This document shows, in pieces, positions 1 through 39,154 of a DNA stretch of 41,995 bases. Every line of letters begins with the position of its first letter. Position 1 is the first letter of the stretch. The position numbers and the translations under genes were made by a program. The notes below the pieces were generated by a model that saw only the letters and a program-made list of their open reading frames with translations, was not told where the DNA came from and made no database searches. The stretch is from Rhodocyclales bacterium (lineage in GTDB: Bacteria; Pseudomonadota; Gammaproteobacteria; Burkholderiales; Rhodocyclaceae): the NCBI GenBank assembly GCA_016235805.1, contig JACRIY010000117.1:1-41995 (forward strand), in the 5' to 3' direction.

Positions 1-2817
1 GCGGAACTCGAGGAAGGGCGCGAACCATTCGAACTCGAACGCATAGCCGGCGCGCTGCAGGTCAAGCACCACGTCCTTCATGTCCTGGGCGACGAAGTGC
101 GGCAGCATGAAGCGATCATGCAGGCCGGTACCCCAGCGCATTAGGCCCTGGCCGCTGCCGGTGTAGGGCGTCTGCCAGAAGCGCGCCACCAGCGCGCGCA
201 GCAGCAGCATTTGCAGCAGAGACATCTGCGCGTGCGGCGGCATTTCGAAGCCGCGGAATTCGACCAGGCCGAGGCGCCCGGTGGCGCTGTCGGGTGAATA
301 GAGCTTGTCGATGCAGAACTCGGCGCGGTGGGTGTTGCCGGAAAGATCGACCAGCAGGTTCCTCAGCAGCCTGTCGACCAGCCAGGGCTGCAGGGTTTCC
401 TCGCCCGGCTTGAGCCGCGAGGCCATCTGCTGGAAGGCGATTTCGAGTTCGTAGAGGCTTTCGTGGCGCGCTTCGTCGACGCGCGGTGCCTGGCTGGTGG
501 GGCCGATGAACATGCCTGAGAACAGGTAGGACAGCGCCGGATGATGCTGCCAGTAGGCGATCAGGCTCATCAGCAGATCGGGACGGCGCAGGCAGGGCGA
601 GTCGGCCGGGTTGGCGGCGCCGAGCGTGATGTGGTTGCCCCCGCCGGTGCCGGTGTGGCGCCCGTCGAGCATGAACTTCTCGGTGCCCAGACGCGTCAGG
701 CGCGCTTCCTCGTAAAGGATCTGCGTGTTCGTTACGAGCTGGGTCCAACTGCTGGCCGGGTGAATGTTGACTTCGATCACGCCGGGGTCGGGTGTGATGC
801 GGAATTCCTTGAGGCGCGGATCGGACGGCGGCGTATAGCCTTCGAGGCGTACCGGGAGCTTCAAGTCGGCGGCGGTGGCTTCGATCGCGGTGAGCAGCGT
901 GATGAAATCTTCGAGCAAGGGCACGGGCGGCAGGAAGATGCACAGCACGCCCTCGCGCACTTCGGCGCACAGCGCGGTGTGCACGATCTCGCGCGGGTCG
1001 TAGCCGGACTTCGGCGTGGCGGGTGGTTGCTCGATCTTGAGCCGCGGCTTGTCTGCTTCCACTGCCGCCGCCGCGGCAACGGGGTCGGCGAGTGGCTCCT
1101 GCTCGGCAAACGGATCGCGCGGGTGTTCTTCTTCCTTGTCGCCGGGCGCCACCCAGGGCAGGGAGGCCAGCGGCAGGCGCAGGCCCAGCGGCGAATCGCC
1201 GGGGATCAGGTAGAGATGTTCGCGGCGCAGCGGCCAGGGGCTGGAGCGGAAGCGGGATGAAGAGTCGGCGCTGGTGGTACGGCGCTTTTGTGCGGGGGGC
1301 ATTGCTTTGAGCGGCAGTACATAGCCGGCCGCCTCGCCGAGGCCGCGCTCCAGCAGCTTCGCCACGCGCAGGCGTTCGTCGGGCTTCTTCAGGTCGGCCT
1401 TGAGCGGGTCGAAATTCTCCGGCCAGCGTTGTTCCTCGTCGATGATGCGCGTCACGTCCTCATAGGCCGGTATCACCCAGCCGGGATCGAGCCCGAGTTC
1501 GCGCGTCAGGCGGCGGATGAAATGCAGCGCGTCCTTGGTCTGGTGCGTGCCGGCGCCGTCAGCGGTGACGAGGAGCTTCGGCTCCCGCCAAAGCGCCTTG
1601 CCATCGGTGCGCCAGTAACAGCCGAGCGCCCAGCGTGGGAGCGGCTCGCCGGGATACCACTTGCCCTGGCCGAAATGCAGCATCGCGCCCGGGGCGAAAT
1701 GGCCTTGCAGGCGGCCGAGCAAGTCGCCCGCGAGCTGGCGTTTTTTGTCCGAGAGGGCGGTGTAATTCCACTCCGCGCCGTCCATGTCGTCGATCGAGAC
1801 GAAGGTCGGCTCGCCGCCCATGGTCAGGCGCACGTCGTGCTTTTCCAGCTCGGCGTCGACCTGGTGGCCCAGGTCCTGCACCGCCTGCCATTGGGCCTCG
1901 GTGTAGGGCTTGGTCACGCGCGGGTCTTCGTGGATGCGCGTTACCTGCATGGCGAAGTCGAAATGCGTTTCGCATTTGCCGGTGGCGCCGATCACCGGCG
2001 CGGCGGACGCCGGCATCGCGGTGCAGGCCAGCGGGATGTGGCCTTCGCCGGCCAGCAGGCCCGAGGTCGGGTCGAGCCCGATCCATCCCGCGCCGGGGAT
2101 GAAGACCTCCGTCCAGGCGTGGAGGTCGGTGAAGTCGTGGTCGGTGCCGGAAGGGCCGTCGAGCGCCTTCTGGTCGGCCGTGAGCTGGATCAGGTAGCCC
2201 GAGGCGAAGCGTGCCGCGAGCCCGAGGTGGCGCAGCGCCTGCACCAGCAGCCAGGCCGAGTCGCGGCAGGAGCCGCGCTTCAGTTCCAGGGTTTCCTCCG
2301 GCGTCTGCACGCCGGCTTCGAGGCGCACGATGTAGCCGACTTCTGCCTGCACGCGCTGGTTGACGCCGACCAGCATGTCAATGGTGCGCATCTCCCTGGC
2401 CAGAAGTTCCTTGCGTGTGCGCTCGAGCCAGTCGGCCAGCAGCGGTCCGGCCGGATCGACTTCGAGGTAGGGACCGAGTTCGCGCTTGAGGCCCTCCGGA
2501 TACTCGAAGGGAAAGTTCTCGGCGGACTCGTCCATGAAGAAGTCGAAGGGATTGATCACCGTCATGTCGGCGACCAGATCGACCGTGATCGAAAGCGCTT
2601 CCGCCTTTTCGGGGAACACCAGGCGAGCCACCCAGTTACCGAACGGATCCTGCTGCCAGTTGAGGAAGTGGCCGGCCGGTTCGATCTTCAGCGAGTAGCC
2701 GAGGATGGGCGTGCGGGCGTGGGCGGCGGGGCGCAGGCGCACCTCGTGCGGCCAGAGCTGGACCGAGCGGTCGAAGCTGTAGCGGGTCTGGTGGTGAAGC
2801 GCGACGCGGATGGTCAT
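1..2817 (-). CDS. Transglutaminase-like protein with C-terminal DUF2126 (3' end outside window)
   Basis: The reading frame is open from an ATG at 2817 to the window edge, giving 939 residues of a protein usually about 1100 long. Residues 1-90 look like the bacterial transglutaminase N-terminal domain. A papain-like core follows, with Cys184 in KRGSCRDSAW, His233 in DLHAWTEV and Asp249 in GLDPTSG, which fit the expected triad. The rest matches DUF2126, including GRHTGTGGGNHITLG. The family acts as a cytoplasmic cysteine peptidase or amide-bond enzyme of unknown substrate. It is the last gene of a four-gene minus-strand run and starts 58 bp after the Anbu gene, so shared transcription is likely. 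A copy of the 24-bp dispersed motif lies inside it at 1263-1285. Confidence 0.9.
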   Translation of the reverse strand, partial: MTIRVALHHQTRYSFDRSVQLWPHEVRLRPAAHARTPILGYSLKIEPAGHFLNWQQDPFGNWVARLVFPEKAEALSITVDLVADMTVINPFDFFMDESAENFPFEYPEGLKRELGPYLEVDPAGPLLADWLERTRKELLAREMRTIDMLVGVNQRVQAEVGYIVRLEAGVQTPEETLELKRGSCRDSAWLLVQALRHLGLAARFASGYLIQLTADQKALDGPSGTDHDFTDLHAWTEVFIPGAGWIGLDPTSGLLAGEGHIPLACTAMPASAAPVIGATGKCETHFDFAMQVTRIHEDPRVTKPYTEAQWQAVQDLGHQVDAELEKHDVRLTMGGEPTFVSIDDMDGAEWNYTALSDKKRQLAGDLLGRLQGHFAPGAMLHFGQGKWYPGEPLPRWALGCYWRTDGKALWREPKLLVTADGAGTHQTKDALHFIRRLTRELGLDPGWVIPAYEDVTRIIDEEQRWPENFDPLKADLKKPDERLRVAKLLERGLGEAAGYVLPLKAMPPAQKRRTTSADSSSRFRSSPWPLRREHLYLIPGDSPLGLRLPLASLPWVAPGDKEEEHPRDPFAEQEPLADPVAAAAAVEADKPRLKIEQPPATPKSGYDPREIVHTALCAEVREGVLCIFLPPVPLLEDFITLLTAIEATAADLKLPVRLEGYTPPSDPRLKEFRITPDPGVIEVNIHPASSWTQLVTNTQILYEEARLTRLGTEKFMLDGRHTGTGGGNHITLGAANPADSPCLRRPDLLMSLIAYWQHHPALSYLFSGMFIGPTSQAPRVDEARHESLYELEIAFQQMASRLKPGEETLQPWLVDRLLRNLLVDLSGNTHRAEFCIDKLYSPDSATGRLGLVEFRGFEMPPHAQMSLLQMLLLRALVARFWQTPYTGSGQGLMRWGTGLHDRFMLPHFVAQDMKDVVLDLQRAGYAFEFEWFAPFLEFR
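1263..1285 (+). repeat. 24-bp dispersed motif, copy in transglutaminase gene
   Basis: AGTCGGCGCTG, then GTGGT, then ACGGCGC. The gene reads it as RTTSAD. Confidence 0.7.
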
Positions 2818-2875
2818 CGGGAGCCGATCAATGTCTGGATTTCGGTAAAAGAGCGGCAGTCGCGCCGTGCGCGTG

Positions 2876-3601: not shown

Positions 3602-3620
3602 GGTTGCTTCCTCTCCGGGT

Positions 3621-10503: not shown

Positions 10504-11814
10504 ATGGATCCCCTGATCGTGGCCGTGATCGGCCTGGTGCTGATGTCGGCGCTGATGCTGCTCGGCATGCCCATCGCATTCACCATGCTGGCTGCCGGCC
10601 TGCTTGGCAATGCCTACCTGCTTTCCGTCCCCGCCGCGACCCATCTCGCGGCGACCAATGTCTGGGAGCAGTTTTCCTCCTACGGCCTGTCGGTGATTCC
10701 GCTGTTCGTGCTGATGGGCCAGTTCGCCTATCGCGCCGGTACCACCGAACGCCTCTATAACGCTGCCTACACCTGGGTCGGGCGCATGCCCGGCGGTCTT
10801 GCCTGCACCACGGTGGCCGCCAGCGCCGGCTTCTCGGCGATATGCGGCTCGAACTCGGCGACAACCGCCACCATGGGCACCATCGCCATGCCCGAAATGC
10901 GCCGCTACGGCTACGACCCGGCCCTATCAACCGGCGCCATCGCGGTCGGCGGCACGCTCGGCGTGGTGATCCCGCCCAGCGTGGTGCTGATCGTGATCGC
11001 GGTGCAGACCGAGCAGTCGCTGCTGCGCCTGTTCGTCGCTGCCGTGGTCCCGGGCCTGATCCTCACCGCGCTGTTCCTGGCGACCATCGTCTGGATGTGC
11101 ATGCGCAATCCGGCGCTGGGGCCGCTGGGACCGAAAACCAGCTGGGGCGAAAAGCTGCGCGCGCTGTCCGGCGTGGTCGAGGCCCTGCTGCTGTTCAGCC
11201 TGGTCATCGGCGGCCTTTACATGGGCTGGTTCACCCCCACCGAGGCCGGCGCCGCCGGCGCCTTCGGCGCGCTGGCGATCGGCCTGGTGCAGCGCAGCCT
11301 GGGCTTCAAGGGCATCGTCCAGTCCATCGTCGAAAGCGTGCGCATTTCGGCCATGGTGGTGCTGCTGATCGCGGGCGCCGTGCTCTTCGGCCGCTTCCTC
11401 ACGGTGTCGCGGCTGCCCTTCGAGCTGGCCGAATGGGCCGCTGCGCTGCCGGTGGCGCCCTTCGTCATCCTGCTGGTGGTGCTGGGCATCTACATCGTCG
11501 GCGGCATGCTGATGGATGCGCTGGGCTTTCTCGTCGTCACCATCCCGATCTTCTTTCCGCTCGGCGTCGCGCTCGGCTACGACCCGGTCTGGTACACGGT
11601 GATCCTCACCATCGTCACCACCATGGGCGCGGTAACGCCGCCGGTTGGGGTCAATGTCTTCATCGTCCATGGCCTCGCGCCCGAGATACCGATACACACG
11701 ATTTTCCGCGGGGTGTTCTATTTCCTGGCCTCGTTCGCGATCTGCATCCTGCTGATGTGGGTCTTCCCGGCGACCGTCACCGGTCTGCCGGACTGGATGC
11801 TGGGGCCAGGATGA
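10504..11814 (+). CDS. dctM: TRAP transporter large permease subunit (DctM)
   Basis: A 436-residue, strongly hydrophobic protein with many membrane segments, the standard length for DctM. Typical stretches include GMPIAFTML near the N-terminus, SAGFSAICGSNSATTATMG and GVVIPPSVVLIV in the first half, and GAVTPPVGVNVFIV near the end. It forms the sodium-coupled translocation channel with DctQ. The start follows GAAAGGA. It is 14 bp after dctQ and clearly in the same operon. A copy of the 24-bp dispersed motif overlaps its stop codon. Confidence 0.93.
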   Translation: MDPLIVAVIGLVLMSALMLLGMPIAFTMLAAGLLGNAYLLSVPAATHLAATNVWEQFSSYGLSVIPLFVLMGQFAYRAGTTERLYNAAYTWVGRMPGGLACTTVAASAGFSAICGSNSATTATMGTIAMPEMRRYGYDPALSTGAIAVGGTLGVVIPPSVVLIVIAVQTEQSLLRLFVAAVVPGLILTALFLATIVWMCMRNPALGPLGPKTSWGEKLRALSGVVEALLLFSLVIGGLYMGWFTPTEAGAAGAFGALAIGLVQRSLGFKGIVQSIVESVRISAMVVLLIAGAVLFGRFLTVSRLPFELAEWAAALPVAPFVILLVVLGIYIVGGMLMDALGFLVVTIPIFFPLGVALGYDPVWYTVILTIVTTMGAVTPPVGVNVFIVHGLAPEIPIHTIFRGVFYFLASFAICILLMWVFPATVTGLPDWMLGPG

Positions 11815-11838
11815 AAGTCGGCGCTGACGGTACGGCAC
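11814..11838 (+). repeat. 24-bp dispersed motif after dctM
   Basis: AAAGTCGGCGCTG, then ACGGT, then ACGGCAC. It starts at the last base of the dctM stop and is intergenic. Confidence 0.7.
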
Positions 11839-15251: not shown

Positions 15252-18200
15252 ATGGCACGTTCGCTCCGCTTCTGGCTTTCGCTCGGCTTGTCGACCCTGG
15301 TGGCGCTCGCCGTGCTGATCGTGCTCGGCGTCGTGCTCGGGGTGCTGATGCCCCGCCTCAATGCCGAAGTCGAATCGCGCAACCTGGCGCTCGGCGAGGT
15401 GGCCGCGCGCCAGGTAGCCGGCCGGCTGGAGGATTTCGCCTCGGACATGTCGCTGCTGGCATCCGATCTCGCCCTGTCCCCGGCGCGCAGCGAGGAACAC
15501 CGGCGCATCGCGATCGACACCGTGGCGCAAATGAAAAAATCGCTGGATACGCTGTACGTGCTCGATCCCGCCGACCGCGTAATCGATGTCGGCATGCCGG
15601 TGGCGCGCCGGGCGTCGCGCGCCAACCTGATGGGCATCGATTTTTCCAGTCGAGAGTACGTGCGCCAGGCGCGTTCCCGCGGGGCGCTGGTCTGGTCCGA
15701 TACCTACCTGTCGGTCGATGGCCGCATCGTCGTCGCGCTGGCGATTCCGCTGCGTTCGACGCCGGGGGGTGCCAACAACGCCAATGTCATCGTCGGCGAG
15801 CTCGATCTGGAGGAGCTCTCGCGTTTCGCCGGCGATCTGAGCCAGGGGGGCGCCCTGCTGCCGATCATCCTCGACGCGCGCAGCCATGTGGTCGGCCACC
15901 CGAAGCCGGAGCGCGCCCTGCGGCAGGAAAACCTCGGTCACCTGCCGCTGCTGGCCAAGGGAGTGGCCGCACTTCCGCGCTCCGCGCGTTTCCGCCTCGA
16001 CGAGGTCGAGTACATCGGCAGCTACACGCCGCTCGGGCAACAGGGCTGGGGCGTGGTGATGGCGCAACCGGTCGACCTGGCATTCGCCACCGTGCGCAAG
16101 ACCTTGCTGGCGCTGGGGGTCGGCAGCGCGCTGGCGATGGCGCTGGCCCTCATTGCCGCCGTACTTGCCGGTCGCCGCATGACCCGTCGCGTGGCCGAGT
16201 TTGCCGCGCAGATCGAAAGCATCGCCGCCGGCGACTACCGGGCGCGCCTGCCGCGGTCGACCACCGACGAGATCGAACGCCTGGTGCAGAGCACGCGGCG
16301 CATGGCGGCTGCGGTGCTGGAGCGGGAATCGGCCCTGCGGCGCAGCGAGGCCAAGTACCGCAGCCTGATCGAGACCTCGCACGACCTGATCACGCGGGTG
16401 GATATCGACGGTCGGCTGACCTTCGTAAATCCGATGGCGACGACCTACTTCGGCCTGCCCGCGGACCAATGCGCGGGGTTGTCGGCGTTCGAATTCGTCC
16501 ATCCCGATGATCGCGCCGCGACCGAGGCCGCGTTCGCCAAATGGATCGCCGCCGGCTGCGATGAAGTCTTCGAATTCGAGAATCGCCAGGTGTCGCGCGA
16601 GGGCAACGTGCACCTCATGCAGTGGTGCCTGGTCGCAGAACGTGAGCAGGCGAACGGCAACGGCAATGGCAATGGCAATGGCCATGGCAATGGCAACGGG
16701 CATGGCAATGGCAATGGCCATGGCAATGGCAACGGGCATGGCAATGGCAATGGCCATGGCAATGGCAACGGGCATGGCGAACTTCGCGCCGGCGGCCGGA
16801 TGCTGGTCGGCTTTTCGGGCATCGCTCGAGATGTCACGGTGGAGAGGGCGGCAAAGGACGAACTGGCGGCCTCCGAACAGCGCTATCGCGACATGTTCCT
16901 GCGCGCGCCGCTGGCCTATCAGTCGCTCGACCTGGATACCCGCATCATCGACGTCAATGATGCATGGCTGGCCCTGCTCGGCGGCTATCGGCGCGAGGAG
17001 GTATTGGGGCGGGAAATCACCGACTTCATCGAGGAGGGCTCGTGTGCTGCGCTGGCGAGCAAGTTTCCCGAGTTCTTTTCACGGGGCAGCCTGGACGGTC
17101 CGGTGTTCGACATCCGGCGCAAGGATGGGCAGACGCGAACCGTAACCATCAATGGCCGCATCGGCTACGACGCCGCGGGGGCGGCCCGGACCCATTGCAT
17201 ACTCACCGACATTACCGACCGGCAGCGGGCCGCGGAGGCCCAGCGCCTCGCGGCGACGGTGTTCGCCTCCAGCGTCGAGGGCATCTGCATCACCGACGCC
17301 GAGCGCCGCATCCTGGCGGTGAATCCGGCGCTCGAAGCGATCACCGGCTACTCGGCGGCAGACGTGGTCGGCAAGACGCCCTCGGTATTCAGCTCCGGTC
17401 GGCATGACTCGCTTTTCTATCGGAGCATGTGGCAGGCGATCACGCGCGACGGATTCTGGCGTGGCGAGGTGTGGAACCGGCGCAAGAGTGGCGAGGTCTT
17501 TCCCGAACTGCTCACCGTCACCGCGGTTCGCGATGCGTCCGGGAAAGCGACCCACTACATCGGCAGCCTGTTCGACATCACCGAAAGCAAGCGGACGGAA
17601 ACCGAGCTCGAAAAGTACCGCCACCATCTGGAACGACTGGTCGAGGAACGCACCGCCGCGCTGTCCGTCGCCAAGGAAGCGGCGGAGGCCGCCAGCCGCG
17701 CCAAGAGCACCTTCCTAGCCAACATGAGCCACGAACTGCGTACGCCGATGAACGCCATCATGGGCATGACCAGCCTGGTCATGCGGCGCACCATGGATGC
17801 CAAGTTGCGCAGCCAGCTCGACCGGATCGACCAGTCTTCCCATCATTTGCTCGGCGTCATCAACAACATCCTCGACATCTCCAAGATCGAGGCCGAGCGC
17901 CTTAGCCTGGAAGAGGTCGACTTCACGCTGGACGACGTGCTGAACAACCTGTCGGCACTGATCGGGCAAAAGGTTGCGGAAAAGGGCCTCGGCCTGCACA
18001 TCGACGTGACGCCCGAGGATGCCCGGCGGCAGATCAAGGGCGACCCGCTGCGGCTGGGGCAGATCCTGCTCAACCTGGCCGGCAACTCCGTCAAGTTCAC
18101 CGACGCCGGCAGCATATCGGTGCGGGTCCGGGTCGAAGAATTCGGTGGCGAGGACCTGCTGCTGCGGGTCGACGTGCAGGATACCGGGATTGGCATCGCC

Positions 18201-18839
18201 GCCGAAGACCAGAAGCGGCTGTTCACCGCCTTCGAACAGGCCGACGGCTCGATGACCCGCAAGTACGGCGGCACCGGGCTGGGGCTGGCCATCAGCCGGC
18301 GCCTGGCGCGGATGATGGGCGGCGACATCGAGGTCAGCAGCCGGCCGGGGGCCGGAAGCACCTTCCGGCTGCACGTGACGCTGCGGAAGGCCACCGGCGC
18401 CGTGGCGCCAGCGCCGACTTCCGCGCCGGGCACGGCGGAAACGCGGCTGCAGGCGCAATTCGCCGGTACCCGGATCCTGCTCGCCGAAGACGAGCCGACC
18501 AACCGCGACGTGGCGCGCTGGCTGCTGGAGGACCGCGGGCTGGTGGTGGACCTGGCCGAGGACGGATTGCAGGCGGTGGACCTGGCCGGGCAAACGCGCT
18601 ACGCGCTGATCCTGATGGACATGCAGATGCCCAACCTCAACGGCGTCGATGCGACGCGGGCGATTCGTGCGCTGCCCGGGCATGAACGCACGCCGATCCT
18701 GGCGATGACGGCCAACGCTTTCGCCGAGGATCGCCAGGTCTGCCTCGACGCCGGCATGGACGACCATATCGGCAAGCCGGTCGATCCCGACCTGCTGTTC
18801 GAGGTACTGCTGCACTGGCTGGACCGGGCGCGCAGCTGA
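15252..18839 (+). CDS. Hybrid sensor histidine kinase (Cache-HAMP-3xPAS-HisKA-HATPase-REC)
   Basis: A 1195-residue inner-membrane kinase. It has TM1 (about 5-33), a periplasmic Cache-like sensor (36-275), TM2 (279-309) and HAMP (to about 360). PAS domains start near 370, 546 and 671, followed by a coiled coil (786-822). The phospho-acceptor is His827 in [10 protein letters not shown]. The ATPase domain has DTGIGI and GGTGLGL, and the C-terminal receiver has Asp1123 in LMDMQMP. Within the first PAS domain, residues 468-508 are a Gly/Asn/His repeat encoded by three perfect 36-bp units. It lies 10 bp after the binding-protein gene, its probable ligand partner. No separate response regulator is nearby. 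Confidence 0.93.
16668..16775 (+). repeat. Three perfect 36-bp tandem repeats inside the kinase gene
   Basis: Each unit encodes [12 protein letters not shown]. The three units are identical at every base, and four related N-G codons precede them (16653-16667). The unit length is a multiple of three, so copy-number change keeps the frame. Confidence 0.97.
18397..18420 (-). repeat. 24-bp dispersed motif in kinase linker
   Basis: Reverse orientation; encodes AVAPAPTS between the ATPase and receiver domains. It matches the copy at 22156 over its length. Confidence 0.7.
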
Positions 18840-22155: not shown

Positions 22156-22179
22156 CGCCGTGGCGCCAGCGCCGACTTT
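22156..22179 (-). repeat. 24-bp dispersed motif between glyS and gmhB
   Basis: Intergenic, abutting the end of repeat copy 3. Same bases as the kinase copy. Confidence 0.7.
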
Positions 22180-22223: not shown

Positions 22224-24302
22224 TCAGGCGGAAAGCCGCGAAATGTCGGCAACGCGGTTCATCAGCCCGGCCAGGCGCCGCAGCAGGGCCAGCCGGTTGG
22301 CGCGCAGCTTCGCATCCTCGGCCATGACCATCACGCCGTCGAAGAAGGCATCCACCGCGCCGCGCAAGCCGGCCAGCGCCTTCAACGCGCCGGCGTAATC
22401 GCCTGCGGCGAGCTGTGCTTCAATGCCCGGCGCCACGGCTTCGACCTGCAGCCACAAGGCTTTTTCGGCGTCTTCGGCAAGCAGCGCGGAATCGATCGCG
22501 TCGCCCGCTTCGGCGCCGGTTTTGCGCAGGATATTCACGATGCGCTTGTTGGCGGCAGCTAACGCGTCGGCCTCGGGCAGCGCGGCGAAGGCCTTGACCG
22601 CGGCGAGCCGCGCCGGGACCTGGTCGATGCGCGTCGGATCCAGCGCGAGCACGGCATCGACCGCCCGGTGGTCGTGGCCGGCATCGCGCAGCATGTGGCG
22701 CAGGCGCTCCTTGAAAAAGTCGGCGCTGGCGGCACGCCAGTCGCCGCTGAAAAGTTCCGGCGCGAAGCCGGCGGCGGCATCGTCGATCAGGCCGGGCAGG
22801 GCCAGCGGCAGCGGCGTATCCATCAGCATGCGCAGCACGCCGAGCGCGGCGCGGCGCAGGCCGAAGGGGTCCTTGTCGCCGGTGGGAATCTGGCCGATGC
22901 CGAAGAAGCCGACCAGCGCATCGAGCTTGTCGGCCAGCGCCACGGCGCAGGCCACCTGGCCCTGCGGCAGCGCGTCGCCGTTGAAGCGCGGCTGGTAATG
23001 ACTCTGGATCGCGTCGGCGACGACCGCCGACTCGCCATCGGACAGCGCGTAGTAGCGGCCCATGATGCCCTGCAGTTCGGGGAATTCGCCGACCATGTCG
23101 CTGACCAGGTCGGCCTTGGCCAGCAGCGCGGCGCGCTCGGCCTGCGCCACGTCGGCGCCGAGCCGCTGCGCGATCTTCGCCGCAAGCTTGACCAGGCGGT
23201 CGACGCGCTCTCCCTGGCTGCCCAGTTTGTTGTGATACACCACGCGCGACAGCTTGCCGATGCGCGCCGAGAGCGGCGTCTTCTTGTCCGTTTCGAAGAA
23301 GAACTTGGCGTCCGACAGGCGCGGGCGAACCACGCGGGCATTGCCGGTGACGATGTTGGTCGGGTCCGCCACCTTCATGTTGGAGACGACCAGGAAGCGG
23401 TTGGTGAGCTTTGCACCCGCACCAGCGCCGTCCATCAGCGGGAAGTACTTCTGGTTCGCCTTCATGGTCAGGATCAGGCATTCCTGCGGCACGGCGAGGA
23501 ATTCGTCGTCGAAGCCGGCTTCATACACGGCGGGGAATTCGACCAGCGCCGTGACTTCGTCGAGCAGGGCCTCGTCCTGCAGCCAGGAGCGACCAGCGGC
23601 GATGGCGTCGAGCTGCTGGCGGATCATTTCGCGGCGCTTGTCGAAGGAGGCGATGACGCGGCCTTCCTTCTCCAGCACCGCCTCGTAGTCTTCCGCGCGC
23701 AGGATGTCGATCACGCCGACGCTCATGAAGCGATGGCCGCGCGTGATGTTGCGGCTGGGCAGGCCCAGGACTTCGCCCACCACGGTGCGGGCGCCATGCA
23801 GCAGGATCAGGCCGTGCACCGGGCGCACGAACTGCGCGTCGCCGTCGCCCCAGCGCATCAGCTTGGCCACCGGCAGCTTCTTCAGCGCCGCCTCGACCAT
23901 GCCGGCCAGGTATTCGTCGATGCGGCCGCCGGTCTTCCTGATGCGGGCGACGAAATATTCGGCCTTGCCGTCGTTCAGCTTTTCCAGTTGCGAAAACTCG
24001 ACCCCGGCCGAGCGCATGAAGCCTTCGAGGGCCTTGGTCGCCGTACCGTCAGCGCCGACTCCCGCAGCGACCGCAGGGCCCTTTTTCTCGATGACGCGAT
24101 CAGGCTGGCTTTCCAGGCAGTCGTCGAATTGCAGCGCAAGTCGGCGCGGAGTGGCGTACCAGCGGCCGGCATTGGCGGCCTCGATGAAGCCGGCCTCGGC
24201 CAGCGCCTTCTGCATCTGCTCGCGGAATGACAGGCCGAGCTTCGCCAGCGATTTCGGCGGCAGCTCCTCGGTGAGGAGTTCGATCAGCAGGGTTGCCTTC
24301 AT
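22224..24302 (-). CDS. glyS: Glycyl-tRNA synthetase beta subunit
   Basis: A 692-residue beta subunit of the alpha2beta2 glycyl-tRNA synthetase, needed for tRNA binding in charging tRNA-Gly. The N-terminus [19 protein letters not shown] is standard. The start at 24302 is chosen for this match and the AAGGGAG site upstream, over an in-frame ATG at 24320. The ATG overlaps the glyQ stop (ATGA). Two copies of the 24-bp dispersed motif lie inside it, one encoding GVGADGTAT (24039-24060), the other AASADFF (22716-22738). Confidence 0.96.
22716..22738 (+). repeat. 24-bp dispersed motif in glyS (first)
   Basis: AAAGTCGGCGCTG, then GCGGC, then ACGCC; glyS reads it as AASADFF. Confidence 0.65.
24039..24060 (-). 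repeat. 24-bp dispersed motif in glyS (second)
   Basis: Same bases as the copy after dctM over 21 positions; glyS reads it as GVGADGTAT. Confidence 0.7.
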
Positions 24303-25255
24303 GCTGCAACTCCCTTGCACATGGGAAAGCCCAGCCGTTCGCGCGAATCGTAATAGGCCTGGGCGATCTCGCGCGCCAGGGCACGCACGCGGCCGATGTA
24401 GGCGGCGCGCTCGGTGACCGAAATCGCGCCGCGCGCATCGAGCAGGTTGAAGCTGTGCGAGGCCTTCATCACCATCTCGAAGCCTGGCAGCGGCAGGTTG
24501 AGCCCGATCAGGCGCTTGGCCTCCGATTCGAACTTGGAGAACTGCGCGAACAGCCAGTCGACGTCGGAGTGCTCGAAGTTGTAGGTCGACTGTTCCACCT
24601 CGTTCTGGTGGTAGACGTCGCCATAGGTGACGCCCGGCGACCAGACCAGGTCGAAGACGTTTTCCACGCTCTGCAGGTACATGGCCAGGCGCTCGATGCC
24701 GTAGGTGATTTCGCCCAGCACCGGGCGGCAGGCGAGCGATCCGACTTCCTGAAAATAGGTGAACTGGGTGACTTCCATGCCGTCGAGCCAGACCTCCCAG
24801 CCCAGGCCCCAGGCGCCCAGCGTCGGCGATTCCCAGTCGTCCTCGACGAAGCGGATGTCATGTTCGGAGGTGTTGATGCCCAGCGCGCGCAGGCTGTCGA
24901 GATAGAGTTCCTGGATGTTCGGCGGATTCGGCTTGAGCACCACCTGGTACTGGTAGTAGTGTTGCAGCCGGTTCGGGTTCTCGCCGTAGCGGCCGTCCTT
25001 GGGGCGGCGCGACGGCTGCACGTAGGCGGCCTTCCAAGGCTCGGGGCCGATCGCGCGGAGGAAGGTGGCAGTGTGGAAGGTGCCGGCGCCGACTTCGATG
25101 TCATAGGGCTGGAGCAATACGCAGCCCTGCTTGTTCCAAAAGTCCTGCAAGCGCAGGATGACTTCCTGAAAAGTCGGCCCATGGCCGACTTTCAGTGGAG
25201 ACTCATGCGCGGGTTTGCGCGTGACGTCGGAACTAAACGTCTGTTCTTTCTTCAT
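24299..25255 (-). CDS. glyQ: Glycyl-tRNA synthetase alpha subunit
   Basis: A 318-residue catalytic alpha subunit. [33 protein letters not shown] and the [17 protein letters not shown] block are diagnostic of GlyQ. About 25 residues precede the usual family start near TFQEV; no other in-frame ATG exists in that stretch, so the ATG at 25255 is used. The extension overlaps a perfect 10-bp inverted repeat at DNA level (25170-25192). It forms an operon with glyS by 4-bp overlap. Confidence 0.95.
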
Positions 25256-26850: not shown

Positions 26851-28361
26851 CTTTTGCCGCGTCGCAGCGCCGCCAGGCAGGCGCCGACGGCGATCAGCAG
26901 GGCCAGCGCATTGCCCCAGCGCGCATAGGGCGTCAGCCCGCTGCGACCCTGGGCCTGGACCACCAGCGCGGCGGTGGAGAAGGGCGGCAGTGCCGCCGCG
27001 ATCGCCCCGTCCGGATTCACCATTGCCGTCATGCCGGTGTTCGTCGCGCGCAGCATCACGCGCCCGGTTTCGATCGCGCGCAGGCGGGCGATCTGCAGGT
27101 GCTGCGGTTGTGCCAGCGAATCACCGAACCACGCGGTATTGGACAGGTTCACCAGCAGCGTCGCCGTCGGCAGCGCAGCGAGCAGTTCCTCGCCGAACAG
27201 ATCCTCGTAGCAGATGTTGGGTGCGATGCGTTGCCCGCCGACGGACAACGCTTCCTGGCGCGGCTGGCCGGCGGTGAACTCGGACATGGGGATGTGCGCG
27301 AAGCGGAAGAACCAGGCGAAACCTGGCGGCGGATATTCGCCGAAGGGAACCAGGTGGCGCTTGGCATAGGCACTGGCGGCAAGCTCGCGGGTCAGCGCCA
27401 CGGCGCCGTTGGTGTAGCCGCCGTCGGTGGTGCCGACGGCGACGCCGATCAGCGCGTCGCCATGGGTCGTGACAGCGCGCAGGACGTCGCGCGGGACTTC
27501 GTCGAAGAAGAGCGGCAGCGCCGTCTCGGGCAGCACCGTGAGCGCTGCCGGGTGCGCCTTGGCCAGTTGTACGTAGGTATTGACCGAACGCGGCAGGTGT
27601 TCCGGGTCCCACTTCAGGCTCTGCGGCACGTTGCCCTGCAGCAGGCTGACCGTGATCGGCGCGCCCACCGGCTGGGTCCAGTCCATTGCGCGCAGCAGGC
27701 CGCCGGCACCGAGCAGGGCGGCGACCACGGCCCAGGTCGCCGGCTTGCGCCAGCCGGTGGCGAGCATGGCGGCGATCAGTGCGACGATGAAGCCAAGGCC
27801 ATATACGCCGAGCACCGAGGCCCAGCCTGCCAGCGGGCTGGGCGGGCTTTGCGAATAGCCGATTGCCAGCCAGGGGAAGCCGGTGAACAGCGTGCCGCGC
27901 AGCCATTCGGTGAGCGTCCAGACGCCCGCAAAGAGCGATGCATCCGCGATCGGTCGCGAAAAGTCGGCGCTGGCAATACGGCGAAACGCGTAGCCGGCGA
28001 GCGCGGGAAACAGCGCGAGGTAAAGGCAGAACGCCAGCGTGGCCGCCGCCGCCGCGGGCGGCGCCATGCCGCCGAACTGCGACAGGCTGACATACACCCA
28101 GGAGACGCCGACCAGGAAGCAGCCGGCGCCCCATGCCAGCCCCAGCAGCGCCGCCGCGCGCGGCGTGGCGGCGCGCCAGAGCAGGTAGAGTCCGCCCAGA
28201 GCGAGAGTCGGCGCTGGCCACACGGCGAACCAGGCATCAAAGGGGGCGAAACCGAGGACGCAAAACGCACCCAGCAGTCCCGCCAGGAGCAGGCGCGGGG
28301 CCAGGCGCAGCTTGGCGCCACCTGCCGCAGTTGCGGACAGCGGCCCTCCCGCGTCAGCCAT
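26847..28361 (-). CDS. lnt: Apolipoprotein N-acyltransferase
   Basis: A 504-residue inner-membrane enzyme that adds the third acyl chain to lipoproteins. Hydrophobic segments span the N-terminal half. The nitrilase-like domain has the catalytic Glu in VLPETALP, Lys in YAKRHLVPFGEY and Cys in NICYEDLFG. It overlaps corC by 8 bp, the usual corC-lnt pairing. Two copies of the 24-bp dispersed motif lie in its membrane half, encoding IASADF (27960-27983) and VWPAPT (28204-28227) in two different frames. Confidence 0.95.
   Translation of the reverse strand: MADAGGPLSATAAGGAKLRLAPRLLLAGLLGAFCVLGFAPFDAWFAVWPAPTLALGGLYLLWRAATPRAAALLGLAWGAGCFLVGVSWVYVSLSQFGGMAPPAAAAATLAFCLYLALFPALAGYAFRRIASADFSRPIADASLFAGVWTLTEWLRGTLFTGFPWLAIGYSQSPPSPLAGWASVLGVYGLGFIVALIAAMLATGWRKPATWAVVAALLGAGGLLRAMDWTQPVGAPITVSLLQGNVPQSLKWDPEHLPRSVNTYVQLAKAHPAALTVLPETALPLFFDEVPRDVLRAVTTHGDALIGVAVGTTDGGYTNGAVALTRELAASAYAKRHLVPFGEYPPPGFAWFFRFAHIPMSEFTAGQPRQEALSVGGQRIAPNICYEDLFGEELLAALPTATLLVNLSNTAWFGDSLAQPQHLQIARLRAIETGRVMLRATNTGMTAMVNPDGAIAAALPPFSTAALVVQAQGRSGLTPYARWGNALALLIAVGACLAALRRGKS
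27960..27983 (+). repeat. 24-bp dispersed motif in lnt (first)
   Basis: AAAGTCGGCGCTG, then GCAAT, then ACGGCG; lnt reads it as RRIASADF. Confidence 0.7.
28204..28227 (+). repeat. 24-bp dispersed motif in lnt (second)
   Basis: AGAGTCGGCGCTG, then GCCAC, then ACGGCG; lnt reads it as AVWPAPTL, another frame than the first copy. Confidence 0.7.
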
Positions 28362-34811: not shown

Positions 34812-34820
34812 GGAGCTTTC

Positions 34821-35213
34821 ATGGCAGTCACCCAATATTACGGAACCGGTCGCCGCAAGACGGCCATTGCCCGCGTGTTCATGCGCAGCGGCAGCGGCAA
34901 GTTTGTGGTCAACGACAAGCCTGTCGACGAATTCTTCTCGCGCGAAACCGGCCGCATGGTCGTGCGCCAGCCGCTCGAACTCACCCAGCACACCAACACC
35001 TTTGACATTCTGGTGAATGTCGAGGGCGGCGGCGAGTCCGGTCAGGCGGGTGCCGTGCGCCACGGCATCACCCGTGCCCTGATCGAATACGATGCGACGC
35101 TCAAGCCTGCCCTTTCGAACGCCGGATTCGTCACCCGTGACGCCCGCGAAGTCGAACGAAAGAAGGTCGGCTTCCGCAAGGCGCGCCGGCGCAAGCAGTT
35201 CTCGAAGCGCTAA
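34821..35213 (+). CDS. rpsI: 30S ribosomal protein S9
   Basis: A 130-residue S9 protein. [19 protein letters not shown] and the basic C-terminal tail ending [11 protein letters not shown], which reaches into the decoding centre, are typical. TAAGGAG precedes the ATG. A strong terminator follows. Confidence 0.98.
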
Positions 35214-35240
35214 GCTTCAGCGGTATTTGCGCTGTCGCAC

Positions 35241-35266
35241 AAAAAGCCGCCTTCGGGCGGCTTTTT
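35241..35266 (+). terminator. Intrinsic terminator after rpsI
   Basis: AAAAAGCCGCC-TTCG-GGCGGCTTTTT, an 11-bp stem with a TTCG tetraloop and a T-run, 28 bp after the stop. Confidence 0.93.
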
Positions 35267-35309
35267 CATCCGTGGGTTACCATCAATCCTTCGCAGCGAG
35301 GGGAGTGTC

Positions 35310-36347
35310 ATGATCAAGGCGGGTATCGTCGGCGGTACGGGTTACACCGGGGTGGAGTTGCTGCGCCTGCTGGCGCGTCACCCTGGCGTGGAAATGACCG
35401 CCATCACATCGCGCGGCGAGGCGGGAACTCCGGTGGCGGACATGTTTCCGAGTCTGCGCGGCGCGGTCGGCCTGAAGTTCAGCGATCCGAAGGATGCGCC
35501 ATTGGTGGACTGCGACGTGGTGTTCTTCGCCACACCGAACGGCATCGCCATGCAGCAAGCCGCCGGACTGCTCGACGCGGGGGTGAGGGTGATCGACCTC
35601 GCGGCGGATTTCCGCATCAAGGACATCGGTTTGTGGGAAAAATGGTACGGCATGAGCCATGCCAGCCCTGCCCTGGTGGCCGAGGCGGTATACGGCTTGC
35701 CCGAAGTCAACCGGGAGCAGATTCGCAGCGCCCGAATCGTGGCCAACCCGGGCTGCTACCCGACCGCCACACAACTCGGCTTTCTGCCGCTGGTCGAATC
35801 CGGCTGCGTAGACCCCGCACATTTGATCGCCGATGCCAAGTCCGGCGTTTCCGGGGCGGGACGCAAGGCTGAAATCGGCATCCTGTTTTCCGAGGCTTCC
35901 GACAACTTCAAGGCCTACGGCGTGCCGGGTCATCGCCACCTGCCCGAGATCAGGCAGGGACTGGCGCGCGCGGCGGGCAAGCCGATGGACCAGATCGGCC
36001 TGACCTTCGTCCCGCATCTCACGCCGATGATTCGCGGCATCCACTCGACGCTCTACGCCCGCATAACGCGCGAAGTCGATTTCCAGGCATTGTTCGAACA
36101 GCGCTACGCCAACGAGCCATTCGTCGACGTCCTGCCGCCGAAATCGCATCCCGACACGCGCTCGGTGCGGGCCGCCAATACCTGCCGTATCGCGGTGCAT
36201 CGGCCACAAGGCGGCGACACGCTGGTCGTCCTGTCGGTTATCGACAACCTGGTGAAAGGCGCCGCGGGCCAGGCGGTACAGAACATGAACCTCATGTTTG
36301 GTCTGGACGAATGTTCGGGTCTTTCGCAAGTTCCCGTCTTGCCCTGA
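35310..36347 (+). CDS. argC: N-acetyl-gamma-glutamyl-phosphate reductase
   Basis: A 345-residue enzyme for the third step of arginine synthesis, NADPH reduction of N-acetylglutamyl phosphate. [17 protein letters not shown] is the nucleotide-binding start, and Cys149 in NPGCYPTA is the catalytic thiol. GGGGAG precedes the ATG. The next gene starts inside its last 37 bp. Its position after rpsI is common in betaproteobacteria. Confidence 0.97.
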
Positions 36348-37084
36348 CGCTGAGGCGGCTGCGCGGCCGCTTCGGCATCTCCGCCCCGCGGGTCGCGGTG
36401 CGGACCCACCTGCCGTGGTACTGGCGTGCGCTTTCGGTCATTGTCCTGGCCGGAGCGTCGCTGGCGCTGGCCGGCTGGATCTACGACGCGGGTCAGCGTT
36501 TCGCCGGCTTTCATCAGGGCGCCAGCGAGCACGAGATCGCCGAGATGCGCGCGCGGATAGTGCAGTTGGAGGCGGAACTTGACGGTGCGCGCAAAGTGGC
36601 GAACGCCAGCGAAAGCCGTTTGCGGATCGAAAGTACGTCGCAAGAACGGCTGGCCACGCAGATCAAGACCCTGGAGGAGCAGAATGCCCTGCTCAAAGCC
36701 GACCTGGCGACCTTTGAAAGCCTGGCGGGGGGTGAAACCGGCAATTCCGGGCTTGCGATCAGCCGATTGCAGATAAACCCGGCGGGTGACGGCCAGTATC
36801 GCTATCGCCTGCTGCTTGCGCAAACCGGCGACAAGAAGGACAAGGACAAGGAATTCAAGGGCATGATCCAGTTGCTGGCCACCGTGCAACGTGGCAAGGA
36901 GACTGCTATGATCCAATTCCCGGCCGCCGGGGACCCTGCGGCGGATCAGTATCAGGTGAATTTTCGGTACTTTCGGCGCCTGGAGGGTTCCTTCAATGTG
37001 GGCGCCGGGGCGCGGATTCTGCGCGTCGAGGTACGTCTGGTACAGGACGGGATTGTCAAGGCGACCCAGAGCGTTGCTCTATGA
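36311..37084 (+). CDS. Membrane-anchored coiled-coil protein (DUF6776-like)
   Basis: A 257-residue protein with one membrane segment (about 41-62: [20 protein letters not shown]). A coiled coil follows (70-135: [18 protein letters not shown] and onward), then a C-terminal beta-rich domain ending [16 protein letters not shown]. It resembles the DUF6776 group. Function unknown. The start overlaps argC by 37 bp without a clear ribosome binding site. The downstream bactofilin suggests a cell-envelope or scaffold role. Confidence 0.78.
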
Positions 37085-37129
37085 CCAGCATCGCGTTGAT
37101 ATCAATTGCAGGCGAGGAGACTTCCAATC

Positions 37130-37531
37130 ATGTTTGGCAAGAAAATCAATAAACCGCAGGGACGCATCGATAGCTTGATCGGTGTCGGCACATCGCTTGA
37201 AGGCGACGTGACGTTTTCCGGCGGGTTGCGGGTGGACGGAGAGATCAAGGGCAACGTTCGCGCGGCGGACGGCCAGCCTGCGACCCTGGTCATCAGCGAA
37301 CACGCTCGGATCGAGGGCGAGATCTCGGTTTCCCATCTGGTAATCAACGGGACCGTGATCGGTCCGGTGCATTCCAGCGACTTCGTGGAACTCCAGGCGC
37401 GCGCCCGCGTGACCGGGGATGTCGAATACAGCACGATTGAAATGCATCTTGGGGCCGTGGTTCAGGGGCGGCTGGTGCACCAGGGCCTGCCCGCCAAAGC
37501 CGTGGAGTTGAAGCTTGCCGCGAGCAATTGA
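37130..37531 (+). CDS. Bactofilin (polymer-forming cytoskeletal protein)
   Basis: A 133-residue DUF583 protein that self-assembles into filaments. The core is a beta-helix with hydrophobic repeats (VTFSGGLRVDGEIKGNV, LVINGTVIGPVHSS). The start ATG at 37130 with GAGGAG upstream is preferred over 37106. It follows the membrane coiled-coil gene by 45 bp and probably shares its transcript. Confidence 0.92.
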   Translation: MFGKKINKPQGRIDSLIGVGTSLEGDVTFSGGLRVDGEIKGNVRAADGQPATLVISEHARIEGEISVSHLVINGTVIGPVHSSDFVELQARARVTGDVEYSTIEMHLGAVVQGRLVHQGLPAKAVELKLAASN

Positions 37532-37556
37532 CCTTTCCCGGCATTGAATTCATAAT
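37528..37556 (+). promoter_or_regulatory. Promoter for erpA
   Basis: TTGACC (37528-37533) and CATAAT (37551-37556), exactly 17 bp apart, overlapping the bactofilin stop codon and lying about 50 bp before erpA. Confidence 0.5.
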
Positions 37557-37604
37557 TAGTGGACTTATTTGGTAAACTATTAAAGCCCCCCTCAGGAGAA
37601 CACC

Positions 37605-37955
37605 ATGAACGCACCCACCGAAATGCCGGCGCCGCTGAATTTCACCGATAGCGCCGCGAGCAAGGTCAAGGAACTCATCGCCGAAGAAGGCAACCCGGAA
37701 CTCAAGTTGCGCGTGTTCGTGACCGGCGGCGGATGCTCTGGCTTCCAGTACGGCTTCACCTTCGACGAAGTAACCAACGAAGACGATACCGTGATGGAAA
37801 AGAACGGCGTCTCCCTGCTGATCGACCCCATGAGCTACCAGTATCTGGTAGGCGCTGAAATCGACTACTCGGAAGGCCTGGAAGGCTCCCAGTTCGTGAT
37901 CAAGAATCCCAACGCGACCAGCACTTGTGGTTGCGGTTCGTCCTTCTCGGCCTGA
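37605..37955 (+). CDS. erpA: Iron-sulfur cluster insertion protein ErpA
   Basis: A 116-residue A-type carrier delivering Fe-S clusters to apoproteins. The three ligand Cys residues are Cys44 ([10 protein letters not shown]), Cys108 and Cys110 (STCGCGSSF). CAGGAGA precedes the ATG. It has its own promoter and a strong bidirectional terminator after it. Confidence 0.96.
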
Positions 37956-37971
37956 TTCCGGGTTTCAAAGA

Positions 37972-38016
37972 AACGCAAAGCCGCGAAGCCCTGGGCTCCG
38001 CGGCTTTCTTGCGTTT
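37972..38016. terminator. Bidirectional terminator between erpA and anmK
   Basis: A long hairpin with AAAGCCGCG and CGCGGCTTT as main arms and AGCCC/GGGCT inside. It is flanked by matching A- and T-rich ends, so it can stop transcription from both convergent genes. Confidence 0.85.
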
Positions 38017-38050
38017 ATTTTGCGGATGTCGGGCATGTTCCCGACCGGTC

Positions 38051-39154
38051 TTAGCGTGGATAGATGGCGCCGAGTATTCGCGGACCGCGCGCACCGGTAA
38101 CTCTTGCGAGATTGCCCGGTTCGTTGTTCAGCGTGCGCCAGGCAAGCCAGGCGAAAGCTATCGCTTCGACCCAGTCGGCGCCTTGTCCCAGAAAGTCGGT
38201 GCTGGCGACACGGCAGCTGTTCGCGGCGTGATGCTGCAAGCGCGCCATCAGGCCTAGATTGCGCGCGCCACCGCCACATACATACACTTCATCGGGACTA
38301 CCGCACCAGCGCGCGATTGCCGCGGATGCCGATCGGGCGGTCAGCTCAAGCAAAGTCGCCTGGACATCTTCAGGCTTTTCGCTGCCCGAAAGCCAGCGTT
38401 CGAGCCATGAAAGGTTGAATTCCTCGCGGCCACAGCTTTTGGGTGGGTTCGCGGCAAAAAAACTGTTTGCGAGCAGGTTATCCAGCAGGTCGGGCAAAAT
38501 TTGGCCCGTCGCCGCCCATTGGCCGCTCTCGTCGTAAGGCAGCTCCTTGTGGCGTTCGATCCAGGCATCCATCAGCAGATTCCCGGGGCCGCAATCAAAG
38601 CCGCCTGCTGCCTCCCCGGGCTTGAGATTTGTCAGGTTGGCGATGCCACCGATGTTCAGGATCACCCGATGGCGTTGGGCATCTCCAAACACCGCCGCAT
38701 GAAATGCAGGTACCAGCGGCGCGCCTTGGCCGCCAGCGGCGATGTCGCGGCTGCGGAAATCCGCCACCACGGCGATTCCGGTCAGTTCAGCCAGCAGCGC
38801 GGGGTTGTTCAGCTGAACGCTGTAGCCAACTGCCGGTTGGTGGCGGATGGTCTGGCCGTGGCAGCCGATCGCCGCGACCTGCGAGGCATCGACGCCAGCC
38901 TTGCCCAGCAGATGCCCGACCGCTTCGGTGTAGGAACGGGCCAGTGCGTTGGCCAGAACTGCCGCAAGGTGGATTTCGTTGTGCTGGGTGCCTTGCAGCA
39001 GCAAGGCCTGGCGGCGAACTTCCGGCGCATAGGGCTGCCAGAAGGTCGCCAGCGTTTGTGGCAGCGTTTGCGAAAAGTCCACCAGCGCCGCATCGATGCC
39101 GTCCAGACTTGTCCCTGACATCAGCCCGATGACCAGCGGCGGCCTCGATGCCAT
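38051..39154 (-). CDS. anmK: Anhydro-N-acetylmuramic acid kinase
   Basis: A 367-residue kinase converting 1,6-anhydroMurNAc to MurNAc-6-phosphate in cell-wall recycling. LIGLMSGTSLDGIDAAL, GCHGQTIRH, NIGGIANLT and DCGPGNLLMD are typical. It abuts the M23 peptidase gene upstream, linking wall cleavage and recycling. A 24-bp dispersed motif near its 3' end encodes RVASTDF. Confidence 0.96.
   Translation of the reverse strand: MASRPPLVIGLMSGTSLDGIDAALVDFSQTLPQTLATFWQPYAPEVRRQALLLQGTQHNEIHLAAVLANALARSYTEAVGHLLGKAGVDASQVAAIGCHGQTIRHQPAVGYSVQLNNPALLAELTGIAVVADFRSRDIAAGGQGAPLVPAFHAAVFGDAQRHRVILNIGGIANLTNLKPGEAAGGFDCGPGNLLMDAWIERHKELPYDESGQWAATGQILPDLLDNLLANSFFAANPPKSCGREEFNLSWLERWLSGSEKPEDVQATLLELTARSASAAIARWCGSPDEVYVCGGGARNLGLMARLQHHAANSCRVASTDFLGQGADWVEAIAFAWLAWRTLNNEPGNLARVTGARGPRILGAIYPR
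38192..38214 (+). repeat. 24-bp dispersed motif in anmK
   Basis: AAAGTCGGTGCTG, then GCGAC, then ACGGC; anmK reads it as RVASTDF. Confidence 0.6.

What the first reader, a model, noticed from the sequence alone, without database searches (positions are those of the whole stretch)
1263..38214. A dispersed motif of about 24 bp recurs at nine sites, mostly inside unrelated genes
The motif is AAAGTCGGCGCTG, five variable bases, then ACGGCG. It occurs at 1263, 11814, 18397, 22156, 22716, 24039, 27960, 28204 and 38192, with a weaker tenth in tyrS (41667-41690). Chance matches of this length should be near zero in 42 kb. It sits in six protein genes of different families and in two gaps. On coding strands it reads as xASADF, VxPAPT or VGADGTA, so the conservation is in DNA, not protein. 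It could be a tiny mobile insert tolerated in proteins, an uptake or segregation signal, or a protein-binding site.
Basis: partly seen in the sequence, partly recalled or inferred. Interest (0 to 1): 0.74.

Follow-up and report, generated by a model that had tools for sequence, protein, structure and literature searches.

The report
Genus-wide DNA-uptake-like signal sequence
Hundreds of near-identical 24-letter DNA tags are sprinkled through the chromosomes of one betaproteobacterial genus and behave like the self-DNA tags that Neisseria and Haemophilus use when they take up DNA, which would make this a third, unrelated case of such tagging.

Summary
The motif is real and far larger than the window. 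The window's genome has 593 copies (at most 1 mismatch) against 8 for the reversed control. All 31 genomes searched of its genus carry 38 to 730 copies; the 30 other relatives have 0 to 8. It is mostly not an insert: at both glyS sites and in a phage gene it aligns largely without gaps to homologues lacking it; two lnt loop sites are less clear. It lies in both orientations, is about threefold enriched between genes, leaves two of six reading frames unused, forms inverted pairs in convergent gaps, and is absent from at least 104 kb holding conjugation genes. Three genomes have a concerted one-base dialect of about 300 copies each; G016 keeps only decayed copies in the sample. These are marks of uptake sequences (DUS, USS), with an unrelated, longer sequence. 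Uptake is not shown, no receptor is identified, and ComEA was not detected. Two oddities: phages carry the motif, and small hairpin cassettes sit precisely inside some copies. Best reading: an uptake-type signal kept by biased uptake and recombination, about 0.63.

The parts
1261..1284 (+). motif copy, 0 mismatches in the 15-base core; antisense inside a transglutaminase/DUF2126 gene (1-2817, minus, cut by the window edge)
11814..11837 (+). motif copy, 0 mismatches; begins at the last base of the TGA of the dctM gene (10504-11814)
18398..18421 (-). motif copy, 0 mismatches; antisense inside a PAS/histidine-kinase gene (about 15252-18839, plus)
22156..22179 (-). motif copy, 0 mismatches; intergenic, downstream of glyS; motif also beside glyS in G017, G002 and G023
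22716..22739 (+). motif copy, 1 mismatch (ACGCC); antisense in glyS; 64 of 79 spanning alignments gapless; two congeners carry a 27-bp hairpin insert exactly inside it
24039..24062 (-). motif copy, 0 mismatches; sense in glyS, reads VGADGTA; 8 of 12 congeners compared have VGADGTP, 1 has VGADGTA
27960..27983 (+). motif copy, 0 mismatches; antisense in lnt; shared only with G017 among the congeners that cover it; loop of changing length
28204..28227 (+). motif copy, 0 mismatches; antisense in lnt, reads VWPAPT; site also in six congeners; only 1 of 38 outgroup alignments gapless
38192..38215 (+). motif copy, 1 mismatch; antisense in anmK; no homologues compared
41667..41690 (+). weak motif copy, 2 mismatches (26.3 bits), sense in tyrS S4 domain; no homologues compared

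Best explanation
The motif, about (C)ARAA-GTCGGCGYTGGCGNN-ACGGCGA, is a genus-wide uptake-type self-DNA signal. Inferred mechanism: a surface receptor, probably a type IV minor pilin, binds double-stranded DNA carrying the motif; the DNA is drawn in, becomes single-stranded and recombines with the chromosome. Alleles that happen to carry a better motif are imported more often, so copies build up by point mutation wherever protein or regulatory function tolerates them (molecular drive). Shown here: distribution, origin by substitution at the well-aligned sites, dialect, decay in one lineage, absence from a stretch with conjugation genes. Inferred: binding, uptake and the identity of the receptor.
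For: 593 copies against 8 in the control; 31 of 31 genus genomes carry it, 30 of 30 other relatives have 0-8, and 22 of 24 genomes of named records have 0-13, the two carriers being Rhodocyclaceae/Rhodocyclales MAGs. Substitution: 50 of 66 spanning alignments gapless at glyS 24040 and 64 of 79 at 22719; phage homologues with and without the motif align without a gap at the site. 73 of 110 sites inside genes against 88% expected; intragenic sites use 4 of 6 frames. 11 of 36 sites at gaps are in convergent gaps, which make up 7.9 of 53.3 kb; two inverted pairs 29-30 bp apart. No site in at least 104 kb with conjugation genes (about 13-18 expected) against 10 in the 80 kb before it. GTT dialect: 269, 314 and 308 exact copies in G001, G027 and G015, 0-6 in the other 28; G015 and G027 are sisters by DprA, G001 was not placed. 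G016: 7 sites of 16-32 bits and none higher in 0.30 Mb; outgroup samples none at 12 or more. ComEC in 23 of 23 genus genomes searched, DprA over cut-off in 28 of 31, ComP-family pilin in 30 of 31. glyS type disagrees with the DprA tree for G015 and G027, so genes move within the genus. USS are described as evolving by point mutation and under-represented in new DNA (PMC7811141, passages).
Against: No uptake experiment. ComEA was not found: TIGR00426 gave 0 of 31 genomes over cut-off; the weaker hits in 19 genomes lie in open frames of 550-940 aa. DprA is not over cut-off in G000, G001 and G005; G005 is rated 99% complete and has the most copies. G016, which lost the motif, still has ComEC, DprA and a ComP-family pilin. 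Phage contigs carry many copies, whereas uptake sequences are said to be under-represented in new DNA. The two lnt sites are mostly not gapless (19 of 43 and 1 of 38). The ComP family also matches 25 of 30 genomes outside the genus. Spacing (about 6 kb) is wider than the roughly 1 kb quoted for Haemophilus USS. The two inverted pairs read have no strong T-run.
Confidence: 0.63

Rival explanations
1. The motif is the site of an intracellular DNA-binding protein (nucleoid, repair or a self-mark that spares DNA from a host nuclease), and selection keeps hundreds of sites; phages gain it to pass as self.
For: The motif is long and nearly fixed (about 38 bits, my sum's columns). ComEA not detected.
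Against: No clear polarity with replication, and counts per 20 kb look Poisson, so nothing suggests spatial organisation. At least 104 kb lives without it. Preference for gaps and convergent ends fits tolerance rather than function.
Confidence: 0.22
2. The copies are remnants of a small mobile element (REP or MITE type) that was inserted and tolerated in proteins.
For: Related hairpin cassettes sit in some copies; the motif-bearing protein is mostly longer at lnt 28207 (1 of 38 gapless, 3 alignments of two congeners longer by 8); Y1 transposase family PF01797 is found in 26 of 31 genomes and not in motif-poor G016.
Against: Most alignments are gapless at both glyS sites and in the phage protein. 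Y1 is also not found in motif-rich G001, G007, G012 and G018 (G018 is 99% complete, 526 copies). In the three Y1 loci searched for repeats, the flanking inverted repeats are other sequences (CCAAAGGGGTCAGAG in two). The short motif is mostly in genes.
Confidence: 0.08
3. The copies are dispersed transcription terminators.
For: Inverted pairs in convergent gaps.
Against: Only 2 pairs among 68 sites of the G002 sample, without a strong T-run; most copies are single and inside genes.
Confidence: 0.03
4. Chance from base or codon composition.
For: GC-rich codons can spell parts of it.
Against: Reversed control 8 against 593; shuffled sequence gave none at 16 bits or more; 0-13 copies in 52 other genomes.
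Confidence: 0.005

Closest known systems
DNA uptake sequence (DUS) of Neisseriaceae, receptor ComP
   Same: Hundreds of copies, both strands, inverted pairs at gene ends, dialects, atypical distribution in conjugative islands, tolerance-like placement
   Different: Sequence unrelated and about twice as long (about 24 bp against 10-12 bp for DUS, recalled); another lineage of betaproteobacteria; uptake and receptor unproven; wider spacing
Uptake signal sequence (USS) of Pasteurellaceae
   Same: Extended motif with an A-rich end (recalled for USS), point-mutation origin, intergenic preference, biased use of reading frames
   Different: No shared core; GC-rich; Haemophilus USS lie about 1 kb apart
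REP sequences with RAYT (Y1) transposases
   Same: The hairpin cassettes found inside some copies look REP-like, and Y1 genes exist in most genus genomes
   Different: The short motif shows no such hairpin in its consensus, is mostly coding and is mostly not an insert where it could be aligned well
KOPS and Chi sites
   Same: Short, frequent, genome-wide
   Different: Those are polar along the replichore (recalled); this is not clearly so

Membership tests
Uptake sequence (DUS/USS kind) | Hundreds to thousands of copies, far above chance | tested here: met
   593 against 8 reversed; 31 of 31 genus genomes, 38-730 copies
Uptake sequence (DUS/USS kind) | Both orientations at similar frequency | tested here: met
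   302 and 291 in own genome; 32 and 36 in the G002 sample
Uptake sequence (DUS/USS kind) | Evolves by point mutation, not by insertion | tested here: met
   gapless 50 of 66 and 64 of 79 at glyS, phage gene gapless; not clear at lnt (19 of 43, 1 of 38); anmK and tyrS not compared
Uptake sequence (DUS/USS kind) | Preference for gaps and gene ends, inverted pairs | tested here: met
   37 of 110 sites not wholly in genes against 12% expected; 2 inverted pairs in convergent gaps; terminator function not tested
Uptake sequence (DUS/USS kind) | Dialects, concerted within a genome | tested here: met
   GTT form in 3 of 31 genomes, 269-314 exact copies each, 0-6 in the other 28
Uptake sequence (DUS/USS kind) | Scarce in newly acquired DNA | tested here: inconclusive
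   None in at least 104 kb with conjugation genes, but many phage contigs carry it
Uptake sequence (DUS/USS kind) | Transformation machinery present | tested here: inconclusive
   ComEC 23 of 23 searched, DprA 28 of 31, but ComEA 0 of 31 over cut-off; PilQ, PilT and ComM not searched
Uptake sequence (DUS/USS kind) | Specific receptor | tested here: inconclusive
   ComP-family pilins in 30 of 31 genus genomes but also in 25 of 30 others; minor-pilin alleles differ between dialects in a cluster present in 8 of 31 genomes, but G012 (GTC) has yet another allele
Uptake sequence (DUS/USS kind) | Biased uptake of motif-bearing DNA | not testable with these tools
   needs cells
Neisserial DUS or Pasteurellacean USS by sequence | Core GCCGTCTGAA or AAGTGCGGT | tested here: not met
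   consensus holds neither; AAGTGCGGT quoted in PMC3630211 (passages), GCCGTCTGAA recalled
REP/MITE insertion | Homologous sites without the element are shorter by its length | tested here: not met
   glyS and phage gene; lnt 28207 alone shows 3 alignments shorter by 8 residues, most by 1-5
KOPS/Chi | Polarity along the replichore | tested here: not met
   32 and 36 by strand; 25 of 68 on the locally G-rich strand, a mild bias at most

The most novel reading that the evidence does not exclude
A third, independently evolved DNA-uptake signal, longer than the two known kinds, spans a whole genus with its own dialects; phages evolve it too; and REP-like hairpin cassettes have evolved to insert precisely at two points inside the uptake signal, perhaps catching the incoming single strand. 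Uptake here may run without a recognisable ComEA.
Probability: 0.3. Interest if true: 0.9.

Novelty: new variant of a known kind. Interest (0 to 1): 0.76.

Why it matters
The passages seen here speak of uptake sequences only in Neisseriaceae and Pasteurellaceae, which live mainly on mucosa (PMC3630211, PMC7811141). An environmental betaproteobacterial genus (one named carrier is a lake MAG by its record title) with the same pattern and an unrelated, longer signal would show that the system evolves repeatedly, would let the drive theory be tested on a fresh case with dialects and a natural loss (G016), and would give a marker of foreign islands and of gene flow in these bacteria.

Tried and rejected
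Insertion of a 24-bp element: not borne out at glyS or in the phage gene; not settled for the lnt loops. Replichore polarity: a first listing of G002 sites seemed all on one strand; it was an effect of the listing, and sampled pieces show both strands. A replacement dialect in G016: in 273 kb the best 12-mers had 6-20 copies, none motif-like. Dispersed motif in sister genera: 140 kb of G034 and 120 kb of G036 show none of this kind; G034 has a REP-like repeat. ComP-family presence as a marker: not specific. Minor-pilin cluster as the receptor: alleles differ with dialect, but only 8 of 31 genomes have the cluster, the two dialect genomes that could be placed are one clade, and G012 does not fit, so it is a lead only. 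Y1 transposase as the maker: other flanking repeats in three loci. ComEA through TIGR00426: only hits below cut-off, in long open frames. H1 hairpin: 7 consensus pairs, 0 with both sides changed, so no covariation support. Rfam on the window: 0 matches. First viral scan used too short a pattern and mixed in chance matches. Papers: search 13 (DUS with Rhodocyclales) 0 papers; 39 listed 17 of 17; some were capped (15 of 44, 12 of 96, 25 of 1,698, 15 of 74 listed). Nothing listed reports this motif; the two longer strings of one search occur in none of the 15 listed. Only the open PMC library was searched.

Rows dropped before counts: one search kept 118 distinct sites with full 30-base flanks; one search merged repeated contexts (124 left); one search left L060 out of the glyS tree (partial); one search had no outgroup hit for six sites (anmK, tyrS and four in congeners); L318 was left out of the fold and L048 put in; the G016 sample counts 13 kb twice (L283, L339). 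Viral loci were picked for holding the motif, so their density (221 sites in 1.94 Mb, 151 of 214 loci with a site) is no unbiased figure. Gene calls come from my own simple caller, not an annotation. On re-checking, the lnt counts moved the odds slightly: best reading 0.65 to 0.63, mobile insert 0.06 to 0.08.
Full report
Observation. A profile from 118 sites gives the consensus (C)ARAA GTCGGCGYTGGCGRN ACGGCGA, about 38 bits summed over columns (my sum). Sites were chosen with at most 1 mismatch in 15 positions, so those columns are inflated, but unselected columns are also strong: A before GTC 94%, the C and G of the GCG after CTG 93 and 91%, the G after ACGGC 90%. In 124 distinct cores scanned, ACGGC follows after exactly two bases in 100 and ACGCC in another 15. 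With this profile the window holds exactly ten sites above 10 bits.

How common. The own genome (3.83 Mb, 80% complete) has 302 + 291 copies at up to 1 mismatch; the reversed pattern has 8. Among relatives, 31 of 31 genomes of the genus (own included) have 38 to 730; 30 of 30 others from the family and order have 0 to 8, like their controls. Of 24 genomes reached through named records, two Rhodocyclaceae/Rhodocyclales MAGs have 573 and 444 copies (the second has the same counts as G004 and is probably the same record); the other 22 have 0 to 13. The organism is thus an unnamed betaproteobacterial genus near these; its name was not established.

How it sits. In 627 kb of genus DNA with my own gene caller there are 110 sites above 25 bits: 73 inside genes (66%; 88% expected by chance), 4 across a gene end, 33 between genes. 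Intragenic sites use four of six frames (26, 7, 21, 19); the two frames that spell about SRRWRHG or SPCRQRRL are unused. Of 36 sites at gaps that could be placed, 11 are in convergent gaps, which make up 7.9 of 53.3 kb of gap; two tail-to-tail pairs, L054 near 19145 and L058 near 1773, have perfectly complementary arms, without a strong T-run behind them. Counts per 20 kb in the closed relative G002 have mean 3.4 and variance 3.5; strands are 32 and 36; 25 of 68 lie on the locally G-rich strand, at most a mild bias.

Insertion or substitution. At glyS 24040, 50 of 66 spanning outgroup alignments are gapless; at 22719, 64 of 79; the others differ by 1 to 7 residues, one by 30. At lnt 27963 only 19 of 43 are gapless, at lnt 28207 only 1 of 38: there the motif-bearing protein is mostly 1 to 4 residues longer, in congeners 2 to 5, and 3 alignments show 8. 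The sites in the DUF2126 and PAS genes had 1 and 3 spanning alignments, none gapless; anmK and tyrS had none. A further site in congeners (QKSALAGRR) is gapless in 17 of 21, 22 of 33 and 21 of 24. In glyS 24040, 8 of 12 congeners read VGADGTP; the window and G017 read VGADGTA, which completes ACGGC; the fetched homologues have Pro in 69 of 77 and Ala in 8. The relative L059 has a near-motif at lnt 27963. In a small phage protein, 11 of 16 homologues hold a motif above 30 bits and one a weaker copy (25.5); L478, L482, L485 and L486 hold none and align without a gap there (EKISVGETAR and alike against EKVGVGDTAR).

Upkeep, dialect and loss. An exact search for the GTT form gives 269, 314 and 308 copies in G001, G027 and G015 and 0 to 6 in the other 28 genomes. 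G015 and G027 are sisters by DprA (100/99); G001 has no DprA match and was not placed. G016 (99% complete) has 38 copies at up to 1 mismatch; in 0.30 Mb it shows 7 sites between 16 and 32 bits and none above, while the outgroup samples have none at 12 or more. Its old glyS sites are recognisable but decayed, and no other k-mer took over.

Foreign DNA. Of 20 evenly spaced 20-kb pieces of G002, only L049 has no site. It holds TraN, TraU, TrbC, HipA and McrBC. Reading 160 kb around it, sites stop at 1,895,820 and none follows to 2,000,000 (at least 104 kb; about 18 expected from the genome sample, 13 from the 80 kb before), with GC 0.546-0.590 against 0.608-0.641 before; TraI_2, TraC and TraG/TraD-like genes and a Y-family polymerase lie there. 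The ends of the element were not determined, and genes of the last 20 kb were not looked at. Neisserial islands were found by atypical DUS distribution, and one was reported to exploit DUS as integration sites (PMC7371117, abstract).

Phages. Contigs of 48 to 67% GC carry it, among them some with terminase, primase, helicase, single-strand-binding protein, ParB or integrase genes (ten proteins tested). This fits prophages that share the host's recombination, but it equally fits a self-mark, and it is the main reason to keep that rival.

Hairpin cassettes. At glyS 22719, G007 and G028 carry a 27-bp in-frame insert exactly between AAGT and CGGCG; the sister of G028, G005, has the plain form. The left part of this long form, GTTATGC..GCGGTATCC, occurs 0 to 22 times in each genus genome (30 of 31 have it), and 30 distinct long forms were read. 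A second, REP-like cassette sits at the NN position in both orientations (L318, L341, L053, L275, L271). The motif therefore has two precise points where hairpins are accepted. A seven-pair fold shows no two-sided changes. Mechanism unknown.

Machinery. ComEC in 23 of 23 genus genomes searched, partial in G021; DprA above cut-off in 28 of 31, not in G000, G001 or G005; ComP-family pilin in 30 of 31, but also in 25 of 30 genomes outside the genus; ComEA by TIGR00426 in 0 of 31. A pilE-fimT-pilV-pilW-pilX-pilY1 cluster (named and Pfam) has a close FimT in 8 of 31 genomes; the three GTT genomes share one allele (FimT 94-95% alike) that is 54-58% like those of four GTC genomes, which are 82-93% alike among themselves; DprA of G027 is 88% like G007 and 78% like G008. 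G012, a GTC genome, has a further allele about 51-54% like all. This is a lead, not proof.

Verdict. By distribution and evolution this works like an uptake sequence. It is not a member of the neisserial or pasteurellacean families by sequence, and the functional tests (uptake, receptor) remain to be done. Literature seen: PMC3630211, PMC12616744 and PMC7811141 (passages), PMC2346458 and PMC7371117 (abstract and outline), the rest as listings only. Searches listed no report of this motif or of uptake sequences in Rhodocyclales; most of these listings were capped.

Noticed in passing
L271:8588-8639, L273:8917-8968, and 28 other long forms listed: Hairpin cassette of about 22-39 bp sits exactly between AAAGT and CGGCG of the motif; one homologous site has it in two non-sister species and not in the sister of one.
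   Followed up: partly
L318:1420-1525, L341:9250-9345, L053:1400-1490, L275:16590-16650, L271:495-560: A second REP-like cassette (core GGGATTCCGCTTCGCGG) sits at the NN position of the motif, in both orientations.
   Followed up: partly
L251:781-2400: Viral contig with an array of units spaced 316 or 385 bp that look like integron attC cassettes (GCCTAAC..GTTAGGC, named by eye), with five motif copies.
   Followed up: no
window glyS 22224-24320 and its orthologues: Within the genus glyS falls into two types (about 81-94% and 52-55% identity to the window); G015 and G027 differ in type although sisters by DprA: likely exchange of the gene.
   Followed up: partly
L451-L470: A Y1 transposase-like gene; in L452 and L453 it is flanked by CCAAAGGGGTCAGAG inverted repeats, in L451 by another; in 15 of 20 loci a motif copy lies within about 0.6 kb (my count).
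   Followed up: partly
L049 and L555-L557 (G002 1.90-1.98 Mb): Motif-free stretch with F-type transfer genes, HipA, McrBC and an OLD-like ATPase.
   Followed up: partly
L287-L293 (G034): A sister genus has its own enriched k-mers of REP-like look around GGGAGCGGCGGCC.
   Followed up: no
G005: Genome rated 99% complete with the most motif copies (730) has no DprA above cut-off.
   Followed up: no
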